A DNA stretch of 64,000 bases from Patulibacter minatonensis DSM 18081 (GTDB lineage Bacteria; Actinomycetota; Thermoleophilia; Solirubrobacterales; Solirubrobacteraceae): assembly GCF_000519325.1 (NCBI RefSeq), contig NZ_KI912613.1:3987859-4051858 (forward strand), in the 5' to 3' direction. Below, one piece after another: positions 1,671-51,818 of the stretch; the first letter of the stretch is position 1; every line of letters starts with the position of its first letter. A program made the position numbers and the translations under genes. The notes under the pieces were generated by a model. It worked only from the letters and a program-made list of their open reading frames with translations. It was not told the DNA's origin and did not search any database.

Positions 1671-3788
1671 ATGAGCACCACCACCCCGCACCTCGTCTCC
1701 CTGGCCGAGGACCTCTGGCCGGCGGACGCCGCCGAGGTCCCGACCGACCCGCTCGGGCAGGTCGTGCTCGCCTCGCACCTCCTCGGCGCGAACCGCGCGG
1801 TCGCGAACATCGGCGGCGGCAACACGTCCGCGAAGGGCACCGCGACGGACCACACCGGCCGCGAGGTCCGCGCCATGTGGATCAAGGGGTCGGGCTCCGA
1901 TCTGGCGACGATGACCGAGGCGAACTTCACCGGCCTGAAGCTCGACGACCTGCTGCCGCTCATGGACCGCCCGGAGATGCCCGACGAGGAGATGGTGGCC
2001 TACGTCGGGCGCTCGATGCTCGACCCGGCGATGCCCCGCGGCTCGATCGAGACGCTGCTGCACGCGTTCATCCCCGCCGACCACGTCCACCACACGCACC
2101 CCGACGGCATCAACGTCATCGCGGGCGCGAAGAACGGCGAGGCCTTGATCGCGGAGTGCTTCGGCGACCGCGCGATCTGGGTCCCGTACATCCGCCCGGG
2201 CTTCACGCTCGCCAAGCAGATCGGCGAGGCCGTCCGCGACCACCCGGCCGCCGAGCTCGTCGTCCTGGGCAAGCACGGCCTCGTGGTCTGGGGCGACACG
2301 GCGGAGGACACCTACCGCCGGACGATCTCGATCATCAACGAGGGCGCGGCCTTCATGAACGAGAAGGCCGCCGGGGCCGTGCGCTTCGGCGGCGTCGCCC
2401 CCGAGGCCTCGGCGCTCGACGACGCCGGCCGTCAGGCCGTCCTCGACGTCGTCCTGCCGTCGCTGCGCGGCGCGGTCTCCAGCGAGCGGTCGAAGGTGCT
2501 GCTCGTCGACCGGTCGGCCCCGGCGCTCGAGTTCGTCACGAGCGTCCGCGCCCCCGAGCTCGTGACGGTCGGTGCTGCGTGCCCTGACCACCTGGTCCAC
2601 ACGAAGATGCTGCCGATGTGGGTGCCGTTCGACCCGTCGACGGAGGACGCGTCGGTGCTGAAGGAGCGCGTCGTCGAACGCGCGGCCGCCTACCGCGAGC
2701 AGTACGCCGCCTACCACGCGGCGAACGCCGAGAACCCGGACGTCCGCATGCCGGGCACCGAGGCCGGAGCCGTCCCGATCTCCGACCCCGACCCGCGCGT
2801 CGTCCTGATCCAGCACGTCGGGCTCGTCGGCGTCGCCCCGACCCCGAAGGGCGCGTCGCTGTCGCGCGACCTCTACCACCGGGCGATCGAGGTGATGGCC
2901 GGCGCCGACGCCGTCGACGAGTTCGTCTCGCTGACCGCCGACGAGAGCTTCGCCGTCGAGTACTGGCCGCTCGAGCTCTACAAGCTCTCGCTGGCCCCGG
3001 CGCCCGGCGAGCTGCAGGGCAAGGTCGCGTTCGTGACCGGCGCGGGCGGCGGCATCGGCCGCGCGATCTCGGCCGAGCTGTCCGCCGCGGGCGCGGTGAT
3101 CGCCGGCTTCGACCTCGACGCCGACGGTGCGTCCGAGGCCGCCGGCCCGCTCGGGATCGGCATCGGCGGCGACGTGACGTCCGAGCAGTCGGTCGCCGAC
3201 GCGTACCTCGAGGCCGTCCGGGCGTTCGGCGGCGTCGACATCCTCGTCAGCAACGCCGGGATCGCGTCGAGCTCCGCGATCGAGGACACGACGCTCGAGG
3301 AGTGGGAGCGCAACCACCGCATCCTCGGCACCGGCTACTTCCTCGTGTCGAAGGAGGCGTTCCGGATCATGCGCGAGCAGGGGACGGGCGGCTCGATCGT
3401 CTTCATCTCCTCGAAGAACGCCCTGGTCGCCGGGAAGAACGCCTCGGCGTACTCGACGGCGAAGGCCGCCGAGCTGCACCTCGCCCGCTGCCTCGCCGAG
3501 GAGGGCGGCGCCGACGGGATCCGCGTCAACACGGTCAACCCGGACGCCGTCCTGCGCGGCTCGAAGATCTGGCAGGGCAACTGGCGCGAGGAGCGGGCCG
3601 CGAACTACGGCCTGGACCCCGCGGAGCTCGAGGAGCACTACCGCCAGCGCAACACGCTGAAGGTCCTGATCCTCCCGGAGGACATCGCCCAGTCGACGCT
3701 GCACTTCGCCTCCGAGGCGCGGTCGGGCAAGTCGACGGGCAACATCCTGAACGTCGACGGTGGGGTGCCGGCGGCCTACACGCGGTAG
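1671..3788 (+). CDS. rhaEW: Bifunctional rhamnulose-1-phosphate aldolase / short-chain (lactaldehyde) dehydrogenase
   Basis: A 705-residue fusion. The N-terminal half (about 1-430) is a class II aldolase domain: NIGGGNTSAKG near residue 45 and HTHPDGINVI near 140 provide the zinc histidines. It splits L-rhamnulose-1-phosphate to dihydroxyacetone phosphate and L-lactaldehyde. The C-terminal half (about 445-705) is a short-chain dehydrogenase: TGAGGGIGRA cofactor loop near 455, NAGIA, and the catalytic YSTAK near 593. It is expected to oxidise or reduce the lactaldehyde. This fusion replaces separate RhaD and aldehyde dehydrogenase genes in several Bacillus, Chloroflexi and Actinobacteria. ATG 1671 follows GAGG at 1660-1663. 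It is probably the last gene of the rhamnose operon. Confidence 0.92.
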   Translation: MSTTTPHLVSLAEDLWPADAAEVPTDPLGQVVLASHLLGANRAVANIGGGNTSAKGTATDHTGREVRAMWIKGSGSDLATMTEANFTGLKLDDLLPLMDRPEMPDEEMVAYVGRSMLDPAMPRGSIETLLHAFIPADHVHHTHPDGINVIAGAKNGEALIAECFGDRAIWVPYIRPGFTLAKQIGEAVRDHPAAELVVLGKHGLVVWGDTAEDTYRRTISIINEGAAFMNEKAAGAVRFGGVAPEASALDDAGRQAVLDVVLPSLRGAVSSERSKVLLVDRSAPALEFVTSVRAPELVTVGAACPDHLVHTKMLPMWVPFDPSTEDASVLKERVVERAAAYREQYAAYHAANAENPDVRMPGTEAGAVPISDPDPRVVLIQHVGLVGVAPTPKGASLSRDLYHRAIEVMAGADAVDEFVSLTADESFAVEYWPLELYKLSLAPAPGELQGKVAFVTGAGGGIGRAISAELSAAGAVIAGFDLDADGASEAAGPLGIGIGGDVTSEQSVADAYLEAVRAFGGVDILVSNAGIASSSAIEDTTLEEWERNHRILGTGYFLVSKEAFRIMREQGTGGSIVFISSKNALVAGKNASAYSTAKAAELHLARCLAEEGGADGIRVNTVNPDAVLRGSKIWQGNWREERAANYGLDPAELEEHYRQRNTLKVLILPEDIAQSTLHFASEARSGKSTGNILNVDGGVPAAYTR

Positions 3789-45388: not shown

Positions 45389-48300
45389 CTAGCGGAGCGC
45401 GGTCGTCCGGGCGGCGACGCCCGACGTCGCCTTCTGCGCCTTCGCGGTGCCCGCGACCCGCGTCACGACGGACACGCGCGTCCGGCCCGTGAGCCGTCGC
45501 GTGCTCGTCGCGACGACCGTGACGCGGCCGGAGCCCGATCGGGTGACGGTCCGGCGGCTGCCGGCGACCCGGACGGTCGCCCGCACCGCCGCCTTCCGGG
45601 TGTTCGCCGTCGTGCTCCGCACCGTGCAGGAGACCGCACGACGGTTGCGGATCAGACGGCACGAGACGGTCACGCGCGGGGTGCTGCCGGTGGCGCCCTT
45701 CGCGCCCCTGTCGCCCTTCGGGCCCCGGGGGCCGGTCGCGCCGTCCGTCCCGTTCGTCCCCGCCGCCCCGGTGGCGCCCGTCGCGCCGGGGGCCCCGTCC
45801 GCACCGTTCGTCCCGGGCGCGCCCGTGGTGCCCTGTGGACCGGGCTGACCGTCGGCCCCCGGGACGCCGGGAGGTCCGGCCGGGAGTCCGCTGCTCGTGC
45901 CCGTCAGCGGGACGGACGCCGTGCGCTCCGCGGTGTTCGTGGCGAACCGCAGGGCCGCGGTCGACGTCGCGTCCTTCCGCGACGGTGCGAAGCGGACGAG
46001 CACGCGGCAGGTGCCGCCCGGCGCGACCTCGGTGGAGGCGCAGGTGTCGTCCGAGAGGAGGAAGTCGCCGGCCGACGCCGCGTCCGACGCCTCGATCCGC
46101 ACGTCGCCGAGGACCAGCGGACGGTCGCCCGTGTTGCGGACCTCGACCGACTGCCCGGTCCCGATCGTGCCGACCGGCTGCGTCGCGAAGACGGGCGTGG
46201 CCGCCGAGAACCGCGGACCGGGGCCCGTGAAGGCGGTGACGTGCACCGTCTTCGTCGTCGTGACGGGGGCCAGCGACGCCTCGCCCGTGAACTCGCGCAT
46301 CGACTGGTTCGTCACGGAGATCTGGACGTCACCCTTCTTCAGGCCCGTCAGCTGTCGCGTGACGGGGTCCAGGATCGCGACCTTGCCGGCCTTCCGGGCG
46401 GCGTCGGCGGCGGCGTCACCGCTGCCGATCGCCAGGCCGGCGTCGCCGGACCAGTGCACGGACATCGGGTACGCGAGCGGCACCACGCGGGAGCCGGTGC
46501 TGACGCCCGCCGGCTGCACGATGCTCCCGGAGAGGGTCTGGGAGGTCCCGACCTCGAGCGCCTCGGGGGCGTTCAGGGTGATCGACTGCGCGAACGCGTT
46601 GACGTCGGCCGTCAGCCACTGCTGCCCCGCGTCGTCGTCCGGATCGACGGTCCAGCGGAGGAAGCCGGTGAAGCCGCCGCGGTCCGGCGTGCCGTACGGA
46701 TCCTTGCCCGAGGACGGGAGCACCGTGTACGGGACGCCCTCCAGCCGGTGGACGTCGGCGATCTGCGCGTGCGAGCCGACCATCGAGACGCCCTTGCCGC
46801 TGTCCTTCCGGAAGTCCGACAGGAGGTTCTCGACCAGCGACACCTCGGTGCGGTCGGTCAGCTGGCTGGCCTTCGTCTCCGCCGGGTCGTCGACCGGGTG
46901 GTGCGCGAAGACCATGACGTTCCTGACCTTCGGGTCGCTCTTCGCCTCGGTCAGCGCCTGCTGGAGCATCGGCAGCTGCTCGAACCTCGAGCTGCGGAGG
47001 TTCCCGTACGCGGAGTCGAGGATGAGGAAGCGCGTGCCCTTGTGGTCGAACGTGCCGTAGGGCTGGCCGAACTCGGCCTCGAACGGCGCGGTCGTCGACT
47101 GGACGTTGCCCAGGCCGTAGGACTCGTGGTTGCCCGGCAGGTAGTAGCAGGGCGTCGTCGTGTCGTCGGGCGCGGGCGTGTCGTCGCGGCCGATCGTCGA
47201 GGTCAGCGGGATCAGCCGGCAGCCGCCCTGCTCGAGGGTCTGCCGCGCGAGCGTCATGTCCTGCGGCAGGCCGCGGTCGGTGATGTCGCCGTTGAGCACG
47301 ATGAGGTCGGGCTTCGTCGCACGGATGCGCTTGAGCGCCGCGACGCCGACCTTCGTGAGCTCCGGCGCGTCGGCCGTGAACTGGATGTCCGACAGCGTCG
47401 CGAACGACCAGTCGTTCGCGTCCGTGGGGATGCGACCGTCCGGCGAGAACAGGGGGTCGGCCTTCAGGGGCTCGGTCGCAGGGATCTCGACCGCGCTCGG
47501 GACGTCCGCCTGCAGCGACCGCACGGTGTAGGTGCCGGCGGCCTGGTTGCCGGTGTTCGTCTCGATGCCCTGGAACGAGTTGAACCGCAGCGGGAACGTG
47601 ACGCCGGCGGGGATCGTGAAGTTCAGGTCCTGCTCCGTGCCCTTCCCGTTCATCGCGAGGCCGGTGACCGGGTCGGTCTGGGCGAACAGGCCGTAGCTCT
47701 TGCCGGCGGCGTCGAAGAGGCCCATGTAGGCCAGGGACGCGCTGTGGCTCGAGGTGACCTTCAGGCGGACCGTGAGCGGCTGCCCCGGGATCTCGACGCC
47801 GCGCGAGACGACGCCCGACGCCGTGAACCCGAAGTTCCGGGAGGCGTTGTAGGTGACCTTCAGCCCCTCGGGCGTGTCGGTCATGACCGTGCCGTTGCCG
47901 GAGGTGCCGTTCGGCGCCCAGCGCGGCGGGGTCGCGGCCGCGCCGCCGTCGTCGAACGAGAACAGCGTCTTCGTCTCGACGCCGATCGAGATCGGCAGCT
48001 TCGCCGTCCGGCCCGCGACCTTCACGGTGAGGACGGTGCCGCCGGACTTCAGCGGCGTGACCTTCAGGCCGGCGCCGTCGGGAGCGATCCGCACGACGGA
48101 GCGGTCGTAGTCGAGGTCGAGGTCCTGCGACTCGACCGGGGCGGTGTAGCCCTGCCCGTCGCGGCCGGTGACCTGGAGGCCGACGGCCGACGAGGCGCCG
48201 GAGGCGGAGAACGAGAGGCGCTTGGACGACAGCTCGAGGGTGCGCAGCGGCCGCAGGACGCGGACCTGCTCCTCGGCCTGCGCCGCGTCGGTCCGGCCGC

Positions 48301-49687
48301 GGACGGTGACCGTCCGATCGGACGCGTCTGGCGCCTGCAGGACCCCGCCGTCGACCGTGCCGGCGTCGGACGACCAGCGCACGTCGCCGCGCTGCAACGG
48401 CACCGGCGTGTCGTGGTCGTCGACCGCCTTGGCCGTCAGGGTGCGGTGGAGACCGGGGAAGACCGTGGCCTCCCGGCCGGAGTCGTCGTCCGTCTTCCCG
48501 GCCGGCACCACGGCGGAGAGGACGAGGTCGTCGACCTTGCCGTCGCCGGGCTTCACGAACAGGCCGACCCCGTTGGGATCCGCCCGCTCGCTGCCGTCCG
48601 ACGGCACGTTGCGGACCGTCGCGGAGGTGTCGCCGAGCGCCCGCGCGACCATCGTGGTCGAACCGCCGCCGTCGAGGTTGACGGCCGTCTCGGCCCCGAG
48701 GTCGGCCATCATCGCCGCCTCCTTCGTGAGGGTGACGCCGCCGTTGCCGGTGCCGCCCGGGCCGTCGACCGTCTGCATGATCAGCGTGCGGCCGCCGTCC
48801 TTGAAGCCGATCGCCGTCCGCGGGGCGATCGCGGTGTCGCCGATGTTCTGCGCGACGCCGCCGGTCACGAGCTGCGTGTCCGCGCCGATCGCGAACTGCA
48901 GGTTCTTCGCCGCGTCGGGGTTCAGCGCGTAGGAGAGCTCGACCGGATCGCCGACCGCAAGCGTCTTCAGCGCGGTCGCGCCGGTGCCGGCGCCGACGAG
49001 CGCGGTGGTGCCGTCGGGCAGCTGCCCCGCGGCGGGCGTGGCCGCCGCCTGCACGACCTTGCCGCCCGCGACGAGGACCTCGGCGACGTTGGAGCCCGTC
49101 ACCTGGGTGGCGCGGGTGTAGGCGCCCCACCGGTGGTCGTAGGCGCCGATCGCGTTGGCGCCGACGTTCACCTTGTTCAGGCCGCTGAGCGCGCGGGCCT
49201 GGCCGGCGAAGGTCGCCTTGCCGTCCAGCGCGAGCGTCAGGAGCTGGGCGATCCCGTCCTTCCCGACGCCGAAGCTCCGTCCGCCGTTGCGGTCACCGGA
49301 CTTGATCAGCTGCCCGCCACCGACCTCGAACCCGAGCGCCGCGCCCGAGTTGCCGATGTCGAAGAAGTCGCCGTTGATGCCGGCGACCGCTCCGGCGGCG
49401 TTGGCCTGGTCGGTCAGCGCCGAGCCCTTCGCGACCTTCCCGGAGGTCAGGAGGTCGGAGCCGACCGCGGCGTTGCCGAGGTCGGCCGTGACGACCTGGC
49501 GGTTCACCCAGCCCGTGGACTCGAGGTACTGCTGGTGGCGCAGGGTGATCCCCGGGCCGAGGGTCTCGGTGTGGTCGACGACCGCGAGGGGGTCGGCCGC
49601 GTGGGCGGCTGATGGCAGGGCGACGAGGACCGCGAATGCGGCCAGGGGCACGCGCCACCGTCGGGCGCGTGAAGGGCTTCCGGACAT
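45389..49687 (-). CDS. Giant secreted phosphodiester glycosidase / calcineurin-like phosphoesterase with collagen-like segment
   Basis: A 1432-residue exported protein. The signal peptide ends at AHA (residue 30). Residues ~60-378 are a phosphodiester glycosidase (NAGPA/DUF2233) domain with GINGDFFDIGNSGAALGFEV and TAVNLDGGGSTTMVA. Beta-sandwich linker domains follow to ~750. A calcineurin-like phosphoesterase spans ~757-1000 (SDIQFTAD, VLNGDITDRGLP, LPGNHESYG, VFAHHPVDD, GSHAQIADVH). An ASPM/SPD-2/hydin-like beta domain lies at ~1155-1265 (RNTGDRPLVLGDV), then ~60 residues of collagen-type G-X-Y triplets (~1269-1332) and a basic tail. It probably strips phosphosugar decorations from glycopolymers and then dephosphorylates the product; this is inferred from domains. 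Confidence 0.85.
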   Translation of the reverse strand: MSGSPSRARRWRVPLAAFAVLVALPSAAHAADPLAVVDHTETLGPGITLRHQQYLESTGWVNRQVVTADLGNAAVGSDLLTSGKVAKGSALTDQANAAGAVAGINGDFFDIGNSGAALGFEVGGGQLIKSGDRNGGRSFGVGKDGIAQLLTLALDGKATFAGQARALSGLNKVNVGANAIGAYDHRWGAYTRATQVTGSNVAEVLVAGGKVVQAAATPAAGQLPDGTTALVGAGTGATALKTLAVGDPVELSYALNPDAAKNLQFAIGADTQLVTGGVAQNIGDTAIAPRTAIGFKDGGRTLIMQTVDGPGGTGNGGVTLTKEAAMMADLGAETAVNLDGGGSTTMVARALGDTSATVRNVPSDGSERADPNGVGLFVKPGDGKVDDLVLSAVVPAGKTDDDSGREATVFPGLHRTLTAKAVDDHDTPVPLQRGDVRWSSDAGTVDGGVLQAPDASDRTVTVRGRTDAAQAEEQVRVLRPLRTLELSSKRLSFSASGASSAVGLQVTGRDGQGYTAPVESQDLDLDYDRSVVRIAPDGAGLKVTPLKSGGTVLTVKVAGRTAKLPISIGVETKTLFSFDDGGAAATPPRWAPNGTSGNGTVMTDTPEGLKVTYNASRNFGFTASGVVSRGVEIPGQPLTVRLKVTSSHSASLAYMGLFDAAGKSYGLFAQTDPVTGLAMNGKGTEQDLNFTIPAGVTFPLRFNSFQGIETNTGNQAAGTYTVRSLQADVPSAVEIPATEPLKADPLFSPDGRIPTDANDWSFATLSDIQFTADAPELTKVGVAALKRIRATKPDLIVLNGDITDRGLPQDMTLARQTLEQGGCRLIPLTSTIGRDDTPAPDDTTTPCYYLPGNHESYGLGNVQSTTAPFEAEFGQPYGTFDHKGTRFLILDSAYGNLRSSRFEQLPMLQQALTEAKSDPKVRNVMVFAHHPVDDPAETKASQLTDRTEVSLVENLLSDFRKDSGKGVSMVGSHAQIADVHRLEGVPYTVLPSSGKDPYGTPDRGGFTGFLRWTVDPDDDAGQQWLTADVNAFAQSITLNAPEALEVGTSQTLSGSIVQPAGVSTGSRVVPLAYPMSVHWSGDAGLAIGSGDAAADAARKAGKVAILDPVTRQLTGLKKGDVQISVTNQSMREFTGEASLAPVTTTKTVHVTAFTGPGPRFSAATPVFATQPVGTIGTGQSVEVRNTGDRPLVLGDVRIEASDAASAGDFLLSDDTCASTEVAPGGTCRVLVRFAPSRKDATSTAALRFATNTAERTASVPLTGTSSGLPAGPPGVPGADGQPGPQGTTGAPGTNGADGAPGATGATGAAGTNGTDGATGPRGPKGDRGAKGATGSTPRVTVSCRLIRNRRAVSCTVRSTTANTRKAAVRATVRVAGSRRTVTRSGSGRVTVVATSTRRLTGRTRVSVVTRVAGTAKAQKATSGVAARTTALR

Positions 49688-49812: not shown

Positions 49813-51243
49813 TCAACTCGTGAACGGTCGGTCACCGGGCGGTGAAGACCGGTGAACACCCGCGTCCCCGGTGTCCCGCAGCGCGCTCCAGTCGACCCGC
49901 CGCAGCTGCTCCCGCAGCCGCGCTCCGCGGGCGGGGTGGACCTGCGCGACCCAGGCGACGCGGCCCCGCACGTGGGCCTCGAACGCCGGTCCCATCCCGC
50001 CGCGGTCGGCCGCGCGCGGCCCGGCGACCTCCGCCTCGTGGAGGAGCGCGCGGAGCCGGTCGACGTCGCGCCGCGCGACCGCCGGGCGCTCGTTGACGAC
50101 GATCCCGCAGACGGTCTGCCGGCCCTCCCGGGCGCGGACGCGCGTCTTCTGCGGGTTCACCCGGAACCCCTCGTCGGCCGCGATCGCCGCGATCGTCCGC
50201 TCGAGCTCGTACGCCCGCCGTGCGAGGTGCCGTCCGCCGGACAGGGCCAGGTCGTCCGCGTAGCGCGAGTACGTCAGGCCGAGCGAGCGGGCCAGGCCGT
50301 CGAGGCGGCGGTCGAGCCGGAACGCGGCGAGGTTCGCGAGGGCGGGGGAGGTCGGGGCGCCCTGCGGCAGGTGGGGTGTCGCCAGGCGCCGACCGAGCCG
50401 GTGGTGGCGCTCGATCTCGCGCGGCCCGTCCGGTCGCGGGATCCGGGCCCAGAAGCCGTACGGCACGACGTTCGTGGTCAGCCCGACGATCGCGTGCGCC
50501 ACGGGCTCCGGGTAGCCCGCGGCACGCAGGATCCCGAACACGCGGCCGGCCGTCACCTGCGCGAAGAAGTCCTCGAGGTCCAGCTGCACGACGACCGTGC
50601 GCCCGACGTGCCGCGCGGCGTGGTCGAGGACCGAGCGTCCGGCCACGAACCCGCAGGCGGCGTCGTGCGGCGGGATCGGTGCGAGCACCTCGCGCAGCAG
50701 GGTGCGCTGGACCTCCTTCAGGCGGGCCTTCGGGCGCTCGAGCACCCGGGGAGGACCGCCCGTCCGCGGGTGGTGCGTGTAGCGATAGGCCCGCAGCCGC
50801 TCGTCGGGGACCTCGCGCTCGAGCCCGCGGACGTCGGCCAGCCACGCGAGCGCGCCCGGGTCGCGCTCCCCGACCAGGCGGCCGAGCGCGGCGACCGTCG
50901 GCAGCGGGGCGACCGGCCAGCGGGCGCCGCGCATGGCGGTGGGCGGCGCGTACCGGCGGCGGACGCGGGCGTTGGGCGGCCATCCACCGCGGGGTGCGTG
51001 CCCGCGGACGAGGTCGTCGATCTCCTGCGCGAGCGCCCGAGGGGCGTCCGCCGGCGGCGTGCGGTGCAGGGCCAGGACGGAGGCGACGAGGCGGGCCGGG
51101 AGCCGCGGGCCGAGGGGTCGCACCGCCTGCTGTAGCCGGCGGAGCATGGCGCGCTCGGTCCAGGCCCCGGCGAGGAGCGCCGCGGCGGCGGCCTGCGCGA
51201 GGTCGCCGGGCGGCGTGCCGAGCGGCGCGGGTCCGCGCCTCAC
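49813..51243 (-). CDS. Retron-like reverse transcriptase with ~100-residue N-terminal extension
   Basis: A 476-residue reverse transcriptase. Residues 1-105 are helical and unassigned. The RT core (about 155-405) shows PKARLKEVQRTLLREVL (RT1 region), GFVAGRSVLDHAARHVG, the first catalytic Asp in LDLEDFFAQV (222-227), LPQGAPTSPALANL (292-305), the YADD box (328-331), GFRVNPQKTRV and GRQTVCGIVVNERP (374-387). The last matches the retron region-7 VTG motif with Cys for Thr. The retron NAXXH motif is not evident. The layout resembles long myxobacterial-type retron RTs. There is no maturase, HNH or DGR accessory domain. GTG 51243 is the likely start, without a clear Shine-Dalgarno; the frame continues upstream through non-conserved Arg-rich sequence. 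Its leader is described separately. Confidence 0.85.
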   Translation of the reverse strand: MRRGPAPLGTPPGDLAQAAAAALLAGAWTERAMLRRLQQAVRPLGPRLPARLVASVLALHRTPPADAPRALAQEIDDLVRGHAPRGGWPPNARVRRRYAPPTAMRGARWPVAPLPTVAALGRLVGERDPGALAWLADVRGLEREVPDERLRAYRYTHHPRTGGPPRVLERPKARLKEVQRTLLREVLAPIPPHDAACGFVAGRSVLDHAARHVGRTVVVQLDLEDFFAQVTAGRVFGILRAAGYPEPVAHAIVGLTTNVVPYGFWARIPRPDGPREIERHHRLGRRLATPHLPQGAPTSPALANLAAFRLDRRLDGLARSLGLTYSRYADDLALSGGRHLARRAYELERTIAAIAADEGFRVNPQKTRVRAREGRQTVCGIVVNERPAVARRDVDRLRALLHEAEVAGPRAADRGGMGPAFEAHVRGRVAWVAQVHPARGARLREQLRRVDWSALRDTGDAGVHRSSPPGDRPFTS

Positions 51244-51326
51244 GCCGTCGGCCCGGTCGCGGCGAGCGCCCGCGGCACGCGGCCGGTCGCACCGTCCCGG
51301 AGCGGGTGGCCGGGGCGGCGCGGTCC

Positions 51327-51503
51327 GGACGACGACGGCGACGGGGCCCGACCTCCTGCGTCGTGCGTGCGCGCCCCCGCGCGGAGCGGCGGTCGAGCGC
51401 ACGCGATGCGATGTCCGGCCATCACCGGTGCCCCCGGGGGTTCCCCGGAGCGGCCCGTGATCCCGAGGGATCCGCGGTGCCGTCTCGGGCCCCGCCGTCG
51501 TCC
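51327..51503 (-). ncRNA. Candidate retron msr-msd RNA upstream of the reverse transcriptase
   Basis: An inverted repeat brackets this region. TCGGGCCCC-GCC-GTCGTCC at 51485-51503 can pair with 51327-51351 through 19 base pairs (7, 3 and 9 bp) interrupted only by two 3-nt GAC bulges. The outer arm begins at 51503, 6 nt after a TAGGCT -10 box, i.e. at the predicted transcription start. Inside are hairpins GATCCC-GA-GGGATC (51459-51472), CCGGGG/CCCGG near 51431-51450, and GCGTGCGC/GCGCACGC (51365-51372 with 51397-51404). This is the a1/a2 plus stem-loop order of retron RNAs. High GC makes chance pairing common, and I found no clear AGC branch-point consensus, so this is a hypothesis. Confidence 0.35.
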
Positions 51504-51509
51504 CCGCCG

Positions 51510-51515
51510 AGCCTA
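51510..51515 (-). promoter_or_regulatory. -10 box (TAGGCT) of the reverse transcriptase transcript
   Basis: Read on the minus strand this is TAGGCT, then six bases, then G at 51503. It predicts a ~260-nt untranslated leader before GTG 51243. The -35 region is weak (TGGTGG or TGGACG). Confidence 0.4.
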
Positions 51516-51654
51516 GTGCGTGCCCGCCCCGTCCACCACACGCGGCGATGCTCGCAGACCGGCACCGGTGCCGGGGCGCCACGATCGCAGCCCCGCGAGC
51601 CGCGACCGCGGGGTCGAGGGCTTGCACCATGCAGGAAGCGGGACATGTCCACCG
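51516..51654. other. Intergenic stretch between RT promoter and c-di-AMP riboswitch
   Basis: About 140 bp with no gene. It holds a perfect 16-bp palindrome CCGGCACCGGTGCCGG at 51559-51574 and must contain the divergent promoters of the reverse transcriptase and of the riboswitch transcript. I see no clear -10 for the riboswitch side; CACCAT at 51626-51631 is a possibility. Confidence 0.5.
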
Positions 51655-51810
51655 ACGTCCTTGCTACGGTGCCCAGAGCCGAGTCGCCGGAGATCCTCTC
51701 CGGCGAACGGGGGAACCAATCGACACCGGGGCTCATCCACCTCCCGAGGTGGAGGCGCGATCTTTCTGCGCTCGCCCGTCAGCTAACCCCGTAGGCCGAC
51801 GAAAGAGAGC
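51655..51810 (+). promoter_or_regulatory. Cyclic di-AMP riboswitch (ydaO/yuaA type)
   Basis: The 3' core CCCGTCAGCTAACCCCGTAG (51776-51795) followed by GAAAGAGAG is the hallmark of the ydaO aptamer. Upstream it has the other conserved pieces: CGAACGGGGGAACCA (51704-51718), CGGGGCTCATC (51727-51737) and the hairpin CCACCTCCCGAGGTGG. It precedes an NlpC/P60 wall hydrolase, a known actinobacterial target of this switch. The Shine-Dalgarno-like GAAAGAGAG (51801-51809) is part of the aptamer's 3' strand, 9 nt before GTG 51819. c-di-AMP binding is therefore expected to turn the gene off, possibly at translation. The 5' boundary is approximate. Confidence 0.88.
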
Positions 51811-51818
51811 CGTACCCC

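What the first reader, a model, noticed from the sequence alone, without database searches (positions are those of the whole stretch)
49813..51515. Possible undescribed retron: RT gene with a structured, repeat-bracketed leader
The RT has a YADD box, QGAPTSP and a VTG-like VCG-IVVNERP motif, as in retron RTs, and no maturase or DGR parts. Upstream on the same strand, a TAGGCT -10 box predicts a transcript starting at 51503. From that base the first 19 nt can pair with 51327-51351 (7+3+9 bp, two GAC bulges), enclosing ~130 nt with three internal hairpins. The leader is ~260 nt before the GTG. This is the a1-msr-msd-a2-RT order. No obvious effector gene adjoins it, so the ~100-residue N-terminal extension of the RT could play that part. 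Weak points: 73% GC favours chance pairing, the NAXXH motif is not evident, and no clear branch-point AGC was found.
Basis: partly seen in the sequence, partly recalled or inferred. Interest (0 to 1): 0.85.

Follow-up and report, generated by a model that had tools for sequence, protein, structure and literature searches.

The report
Two-part actinobacterial retron without linked effector
The window holds a genuine retron, a reverse transcriptase gene preceded by the folded RNA that it should copy into a small branched DNA; it belongs to a large, already catalogued but little-studied retron branch common in actinobacteria, which has no toxin gene beside it, so how it works is still unknown.

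Summary
The minus-strand reverse transcriptase (RT; 49813-51243) is a retron RT. Its best PADLOC profiles are RT_other (E 9e-158) and RT_outgroup 'retron'. Its fourteen nearest solved folds are all retron RTs, and its clade sits inside retron RTs with 99/100 support. The leader is a real non-coding RNA: an element at about 51331-51503 is conserved just upstream of the RT, on the same strand, in 80 of 89 related loci. The a1/a2 stem, msr hairpins and msd hairpin show strong compensatory change (26 of 35 pairs), and a model built without the window finds only this place in 64 kb (E 5e-18). The missing branch point is there as an invariant GAG (G51484); NAXXH is there as HAARH. No neighbouring gene is conserved across genera, so this is a two-part retron. 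The RT carries a clade-specific N-terminal four-helix domain with no recognised fold. Genus relatives lack the retron at this site. The clade is listed but untyped in PADLOC and its RNA is absent from Rfam, so I file it as a new member of a known kind. Branched DNA (msDNA) synthesis and function (defence most likely) remain untested.

The parts
51510..51515 (-). Promoter -10-like box TAGGCT in front of the ncRNA
   Evidence: TAnnnT at this position in about 84% of 55 relatives, no conserved -35
51331..51503 (-). Retron non-coding RNA (a1-msr-msd-a2), predicted transcript 5' end about 51503
   Evidence: Conserved element upstream of RT, covariation, leave-out profile hit 51334-51517, CM hit 51326-51520, single copy in genome
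51485..51502 (-). a1, 5' arm of the terminal inverted repeat
   Evidence: MFE fold; 11 of 14 consensus pairs with changes on both sides
51484..51484 (-). Predicted branch guanosine, last G of invariant GAG (51486-51484); window context GAGA
   Evidence: GAG in 43 of 43 sequences, followed by G, A, C or T; GAGC in 9. Position directly 3' of a1, as described for retrons (PMC6868368)
51451..51482 (-). msr stem-loop 1
   Evidence: MFE fold; basal pairs covary (helix 2)
51432..51450 (-). msr stem-loop 2, 8-bp stem with 3-nt loop, nearly invariant CUCCGGGG-nnn-CCCCGGGG
   Evidence: Paired in 100% of cells (helix 3); resembles the 8-9 bp stem/3-nt loop bound by Ec86 and Ec73 RTs
51358..51409 (-). msd hairpin (template of the predicted RT-DNA, roughly 60-75 nt; length inferred)
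   Evidence: MFE fold; helices 4 and 5 with 10 of 11 pairs changed on both sides
51331..51351 (-). a2, 3' arm of the terminal inverted repeat
   Evidence: Pairs with a1
49813..51243 (-). Retron reverse transcriptase, 476 aa, GTG start, stop codon included
   Evidence: PADLOC RT_other 9.4e-158, RT_outgroup 3.4e-148; AF2 pLDDT 93.4; nearest solved folds all retron RTs, 7v9x Z 26.4; tree
50929..51243 (-). N-terminal helical domain of the RT (about 105 residues, four helices)
   Evidence: Present in all members aligned (at least 78% of columns 14-100 filled); no Pfam match in the window protein; no fold match above Z 4.1

Best explanation
It is a retron made of two linked parts. A promoter just upstream of 51503 transcribes an ncRNA of about 170 nt and probably reads on into the RT gene. 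The RNA closes through a1/a2, bringing the invariant guanosine G51484 next to the msd; the RT binds the msr (stem-loop 2 is the likely recognition element), primes from the 2'-OH of that guanosine and copies the msd hairpin into a small branched RNA-DNA (msDNA), which stays in complex with the RT. RT identity and RNA structure are shown by comparison; priming, product and complex are inferred from characterised retrons. No effector is encoded nearby, so the complex most likely acts through the clade-specific N-terminal helical domain or through an unlinked partner; phage defence is the most likely role by analogy and by patchy distribution (about 50%, inferred).
For: RT: best PADLOC hits RT_other and RT_outgroup, all 53 aligned relatives likewise; clade 99/100 within retron RTs with group II introns as outgroup; structure Z 20-26 to the fourteen nearest chains, all retron RTs, against below 19 for DGR and group II RTs; catalytic aspartates invariant in 53 of 53. 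RNA: conserved on the same strand directly upstream in 80 of 89 loci; 95.1% of cells paired against 77.2% shuffled, 258 two-sided changes against 75, covariation 0.476 against 0.147, slid controls about 0.07-0.11; model finds the element beside RTs not used to build it, in Myxococcaceae and in Gemmata-, Rhizobiales- and Verrucomicrobia-assigned contigs. Branch GAG 43 of 43. Distribution: 25 of 146 genomes of the family, none of 7 other genus members; site empty in relatives.
Against: No msDNA, RNA or phage data. The window reads HAARH for NAXXH and GAGA for the branch motif, each a variant. No effector gene is conserved next to the RT, unlike the usual three-part defence retron. In three relatives the RNA lies on the opposite strand, so co-transcription with the RT is not obligatory. 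The consensus structure was derived from the same alignment on which pairs were counted, and related sequences inflate such counts.
Confidence: 0.88

Rival explanations
1. The retron is intact and makes msDNA but is not an anti-phage system: a vertically kept or selfish element, as long discussed for myxobacterial retrons that lack an accessory gene.
For: No linked effector anywhere in the clade; neighbours in the window are topoisomerase IB, a phosphodiester glycosidase and NlpC/P60 genes rather than defence genes; retrons without proximal effectors are acknowledged in the literature (PMC8867640).
Against: Presence is patchy and absent from all seven other genus members, with an empty site in relatives, which fits gain and loss of accessory or defence genes better than vertical housekeeping.
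Confidence: 0.3
2. The RT is not a retron in mechanism but a DRT-like system: it binds the upstream structured RNA and makes another kind of cDNA (unbranched, protein-primed or repetitive).
For: Structured ncRNAs also sit upstream of DRT2, DRT9 and DRT10 RTs (PMC12039810, PMC12632851, from abstracts).
Against: RT is in the retron clade, not UG/Abi; DRT2 and DRT9 structures score Z 15 or less against 26; the RNA shows retron anatomy: a1/a2 covariation and an invariant G directly after a1.
Confidence: 0.06
3. The 1432-aa secreted NAGPA/metallophosphoesterase protein downstream (45389-49687) is the effector; retron and gene came in together.
For: Both lie in the stretch absent from relatives, between the c-di-AMP riboswitch and topoisomerase IB; same strand, 125 nt apart.
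Against: Signal peptide-like N-terminus and domains typical of a secreted enzyme; no such neighbour recurs next to the RT in relatives.
Confidence: 0.04
4. The leader is a chance high-GC fold or a plain 5' UTR of the RT gene.
For: Single-sequence fold only z -2.45; GC of the element 79%.
Against: Conservation, covariation, out-of-sample detection and leave-out detection.
Confidence: 0.01

Closest known systems
PADLOC RT_other (PDLC02949) / RT_outgroup 'retron' (PDLC03740), the untyped retron RT clade
   Same: Window RT and all 53 aligned relatives hit these two profiles best, over the whole length including the N-terminal domain
   Different: Profiles describe only the RT; no effector or type is attached and no RNA of the clade is in Rfam
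Myxobacterial retrons Mx162, Mx65, Sa163, Ne144 (experimentally validated; extended RT N-terminus)
   Same: RT with N-terminal extension, ncRNA directly upstream, branch motif GAGC/CAGC-like, N of NAXXH replaced in Mx65 (PMC6868368)
   Different: RTs of about 500 aa in the same myxobacterial genomes, which I take for the Mx162 kind, score best as RT_XIII, have a different N-terminus and fall outside the window's clade. That these are Mx162 itself was not verified, and which of them matches Mx65 is not settled
Retron Ec86 (Eco1, type II-A)
   Same: Closest solved RT structure (7v9x Z 26.4, 303 residues, 27% identity); same a1-msr-msd-a2 plan; msr stem with 3-nt loop
   Different: Ec86 has a linked nucleoside-deoxyribosyltransferase-like effector (from general knowledge) and no N-terminal domain
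DRT2/DRT9/DRT10 defence RTs
   Same: RT plus upstream structured ncRNA
   Different: Other RT lineage, other priming; lower structural similarity

Membership tests
Retron (general) | RT belongs to the retron RT lineage | tested here: met
Retron (general) | Region X NAXXH between RT motifs 2 and 3 | tested here: met
   HAARH in the window; xAxxH in 52 of 53, H in 53 of 53, exact NAXXH in 5. In a survey of retron RTs H was 100%, A 87%, N 62% (PMC4244168), so this is the relaxed form
Retron (general) | Region Y VTG | tested here: met
   VCG in the window; T in 34, C in 12 of 53 at the middle position; variants are common (PMC4244168)
Retron (general) | Terminal inverted repeat a1/a2 enclosing msr and msd, upstream of the RT | tested here: met
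   Helix 1: 14 pairs, 11 with compensatory change, 92.9% of cells paired
Retron (general) | Conserved priming guanosine at the inner end of a1 | tested here: met
   Invariant GAG 43 of 43, G51484 directly after a1; sequence only
Retron (general) | 1-3 msr hairpins and one msd hairpin | tested here: met
Retron (general) | Production of 2'-5' branched msDNA | not testable with these tools
   Needs expression and msDNA analysis
Tripartite defence retron (types I-XIII) | Linked effector gene or recognised fused effector domain | tested here: not met
   No neighbour family recurs across genera within 5 kb; N-terminal domain has no recognised family
Retron type XIII (PADLOC RT_XIII) | RT scores best with RT_XIII and groups with it | tested here: not met
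   RT_XIII 280 bits against 524 for RT_other; separate clade at 99/100
Group II intron | Maturase domain with the RT | tested here: not met
   Only RVT_1 in Pfam at E up to 1; TIGR04416 37.9 bits against a cut-off of 300
Diversity-generating retroelement | Template/variable repeat pair and accessory protein | not tested
   Not searched for; RT affinity is to retrons

The most novel reading that the evidence does not exclude
A very widespread two-part retron class in which no separate effector exists: the clade-specific N-terminal four-helix domain of the RT, of no recognised fold, is itself the effector or the sensor-adaptor that acts when msDNA is disturbed by phage.
Probability: 0.3. Interest if true: 0.65.

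Novelty: new member of a known kind. Interest (0 to 1): 0.48.

Why it matters
Three-part retrons are understood as RT plus msDNA restraining a toxin. This clade, with at least 553 encoding stretches in species-representative genomes, keeps the RNA and RT without any linked toxin. The work gives a covariance model for the RNA, which Rfam lacks, and predicts a branch base and catalytic residues to mutate, so whether effectorless retrons make msDNA and protect against phage becomes directly testable, also in actinobacteria. The review read here lists characterised retrons only from Deltaproteobacteria, Gammaproteobacteria, Alphaproteobacteria and Bacteroides as of 2022 (PMC8867640). It could also supply retron RTs suited to high-GC hosts for genome editing.

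Tried and rejected
Rfam at gathering and at permissive threshold over the leader: no msr or other match. Conserved neighbour or effector: all ORFs of 80 aa or more within 5 kb in 89 loci clustered; clusters across genera are common families (such as ABC ATPases) at scattered positions. N-terminal domain: window protein no Pfam hit, scattered sub-threshold hits in single relatives; Foldseek best E 5, VIA best Z 4.1, which does not show a new fold. Membership in type XIII rejected. Viral carriers: viral contigs give only distant RTs, best 35% identity and without the N-terminal domain; phage and plasmid collections give no match over 80% of the query. Covariance search of the whole family and search for the downstream gene in the genus failed for technical reasons. 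Mestre et al. 2020 and the 2024 experimental retron census are not held, so whether this clade's RNA was predicted or tested there could not be checked.

Full report
Observation. The minus-strand frame 51243-49813 (GTG start, 476 aa) encodes a reverse transcriptase with LDLEDFF, QGAPTSP, YADD and VCGIVVN. The start codon agrees with the N-termini of homologues. It is the only RVT_1 protein in the 5.5 Mb genome and carries no second Pfam domain.

RT identity. PADLOC profiles RT_other (524 bits) and RT_outgroup 'retron' (492 bits) cover residues 12-459; the next best, RT_XIII, has 280 bits. NCBIfam group II and DRT models stay far below their cut-offs. An AlphaFold2 model from 53 aligned relatives is confident (mean pLDDT 93.4, pTM 0.89). 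The fourteen nearest solved structures are retron RTs, Z 26.4 (Ec86, 303 residues, rmsd 3.9) to 20.1; DGR, group II and DRT enzymes lie below 19. In a maximum-likelihood tree of 39 RTs rooted on group II introns, 20 RT_other members including the window form one clade (99/100), apart from type XIII, type III and others. All 53 relatives keep both YADD aspartates, D221 and K365, so the enzyme looks active.

RNA. In blastn of upstream regions the window matches relatives over about 51506-51332 (L111 79% over 125 nt, E 3e-22). An iterated profile finds the element upstream of the RT in 81 of 87 loci; with both strands searched it is adjacent and on the RT strand in 80 of 89. A profile without the window sequence finds one place in the 64 kb, 51517-51334 minus, E 4.9e-18; dropping four close relatives too gives 5.7e-16. 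RNAalifold on 43 sequences gives 35 pairs, 26 with at least one compensatory double change. Pair counts: 95.1% paired against 77.2% in shuffles, 258 cells changed on both sides against 75, covariation score 0.476 against 0.147, none of 500 shuffles as high; partners slid by 1-3 columns fall to about 0.07-0.11. The structure was derived from this alignment and the rows are related, so these numbers overstate somewhat, but the covariance model then finds the element beside RTs not used to build it, in Myxococcaceae and in contigs assigned to Gemmataceae, Rhizobiales and Verrucomicrobia. In the window genome it has one match.

Anatomy. A -10-like TAGGCT (51515-51510) is conserved as TAnnnT. The RNA runs a1 (51502-51485), the invariant GAG whose last G (51484) directly follows a1, msr stem-loop 1, msr stem-loop 2 (8 bp with a 3-nt loop, nearly invariant), msd hairpin (51409-51358), a2 (51351-51331). 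This matches the published description of retron RNAs, including a priming G within or just after the inner end of a1, motifs such as TAGC, CAGA, CAGC, GAGC, and recognition of an 8-9 bp stem with a 3-base loop by Ec86 and Ec73 RTs (PMC6868368). Nine of 43 relatives read GAGC, the Mx65 motif; the window reads GAGA.

Setting. Genus relatives have acyl-CoA dehydrogenase, NlpC/P60 gene, c-di-AMP riboswitch and topoisomerase IB in the same order, and in two of them the riboswitch and topoisomerase IB are about 0.15 kb apart, without retron RNA or RT. In the window the retron and a 1432-aa NAGPA/metallophosphoesterase gene lie between riboswitch and topoisomerase IB. The RT is found in 25 of 146 genomes of the family and in none of seven other genus members. 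Both observations point to gain and loss. No neighbouring gene family recurs next to the RT across genera.

N-terminal domain. Residues 1 to about 105 are a confident four-helix domain present in all members aligned. It has no Pfam match in the window protein and no fold match above Z 4.1. Type XIII RTs of myxobacteria have a different N-terminus.

Mechanism. Shown by comparison: retron RT lineage, conserved active site, conserved RNA with supported a1/a2, msr and msd helices, invariant priming-G candidate. Inferred from characterised retrons: 2'-OH priming at G51484, synthesis of a branched msDNA of perhaps 60-75 nt, RT-msDNA complex. Open: output. With no linked effector, the clade-specific N-terminal domain or an unlinked partner would have to act; a role other than defence remains a serious alternative.

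Novelty. The RT clade is known to PADLOC but untyped, and putative actinobacterial retrons have been mentioned (PMC6868368). The literature acknowledges retrons without proximal effectors (PMC8867640). I found no Rfam family for the RNA and no paper in the held library describing this clade's RNA, but two key papers are not held. I therefore call it a new member of a known kind.

Noticed in passing
window 51667-51812 (+): c-di-AMP (ydaO/yuaA) riboswitch, 61.2 bits, upstream of an NlpC/P60 peptidoglycan hydrolase gene and divergent from the retron; conserved in genus relatives.
   Followed up: partly
L030:5747-5945, L069:5694-5841, L070:5770-5956: The retron RNA lies directly upstream of the RT but on the opposite strand; in L030 its -10 box is turned with it, so RNA and RT would be divergently transcribed.
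   Followed up: partly
L053:1896-2090 and 3586-3759: Two copies of the RNA element 2-4 kb upstream of the RT and none adjacent, in Nakamurella; possible solo RNA copies, recalling the msDNA-like repeats reported in Nannocystis (reference list).
   Followed up: no
L114:1592-1733: RNA element next to a short RT remnant (53% identity over 47 residues), a decayed retron in the same order.
   Followed up: no
Curtobacterium loci such as L063, L078, L088: The 3' end of the RNA runs into the RT reading frame with no standard start codon between a2 and the N-terminal domain; the nearest upstream in-frame GTG lies inside the RNA, so translation start there is unexplained.
   Followed up: no
window 45389-49687 (-): 1432-aa secreted protein with phosphodiester glycosidase, metallophosphoesterase and collagen-like domains, within the stretch absent from genus relatives together with the retron.
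   Followed up: partly
L122-L128 and L130-L145 (Myxococcaceae genomes): Single myxobacterial genomes hold both this retron clade and several type XIII-like retron RTs, up to six RT matches per genome.
   Followed up: partly
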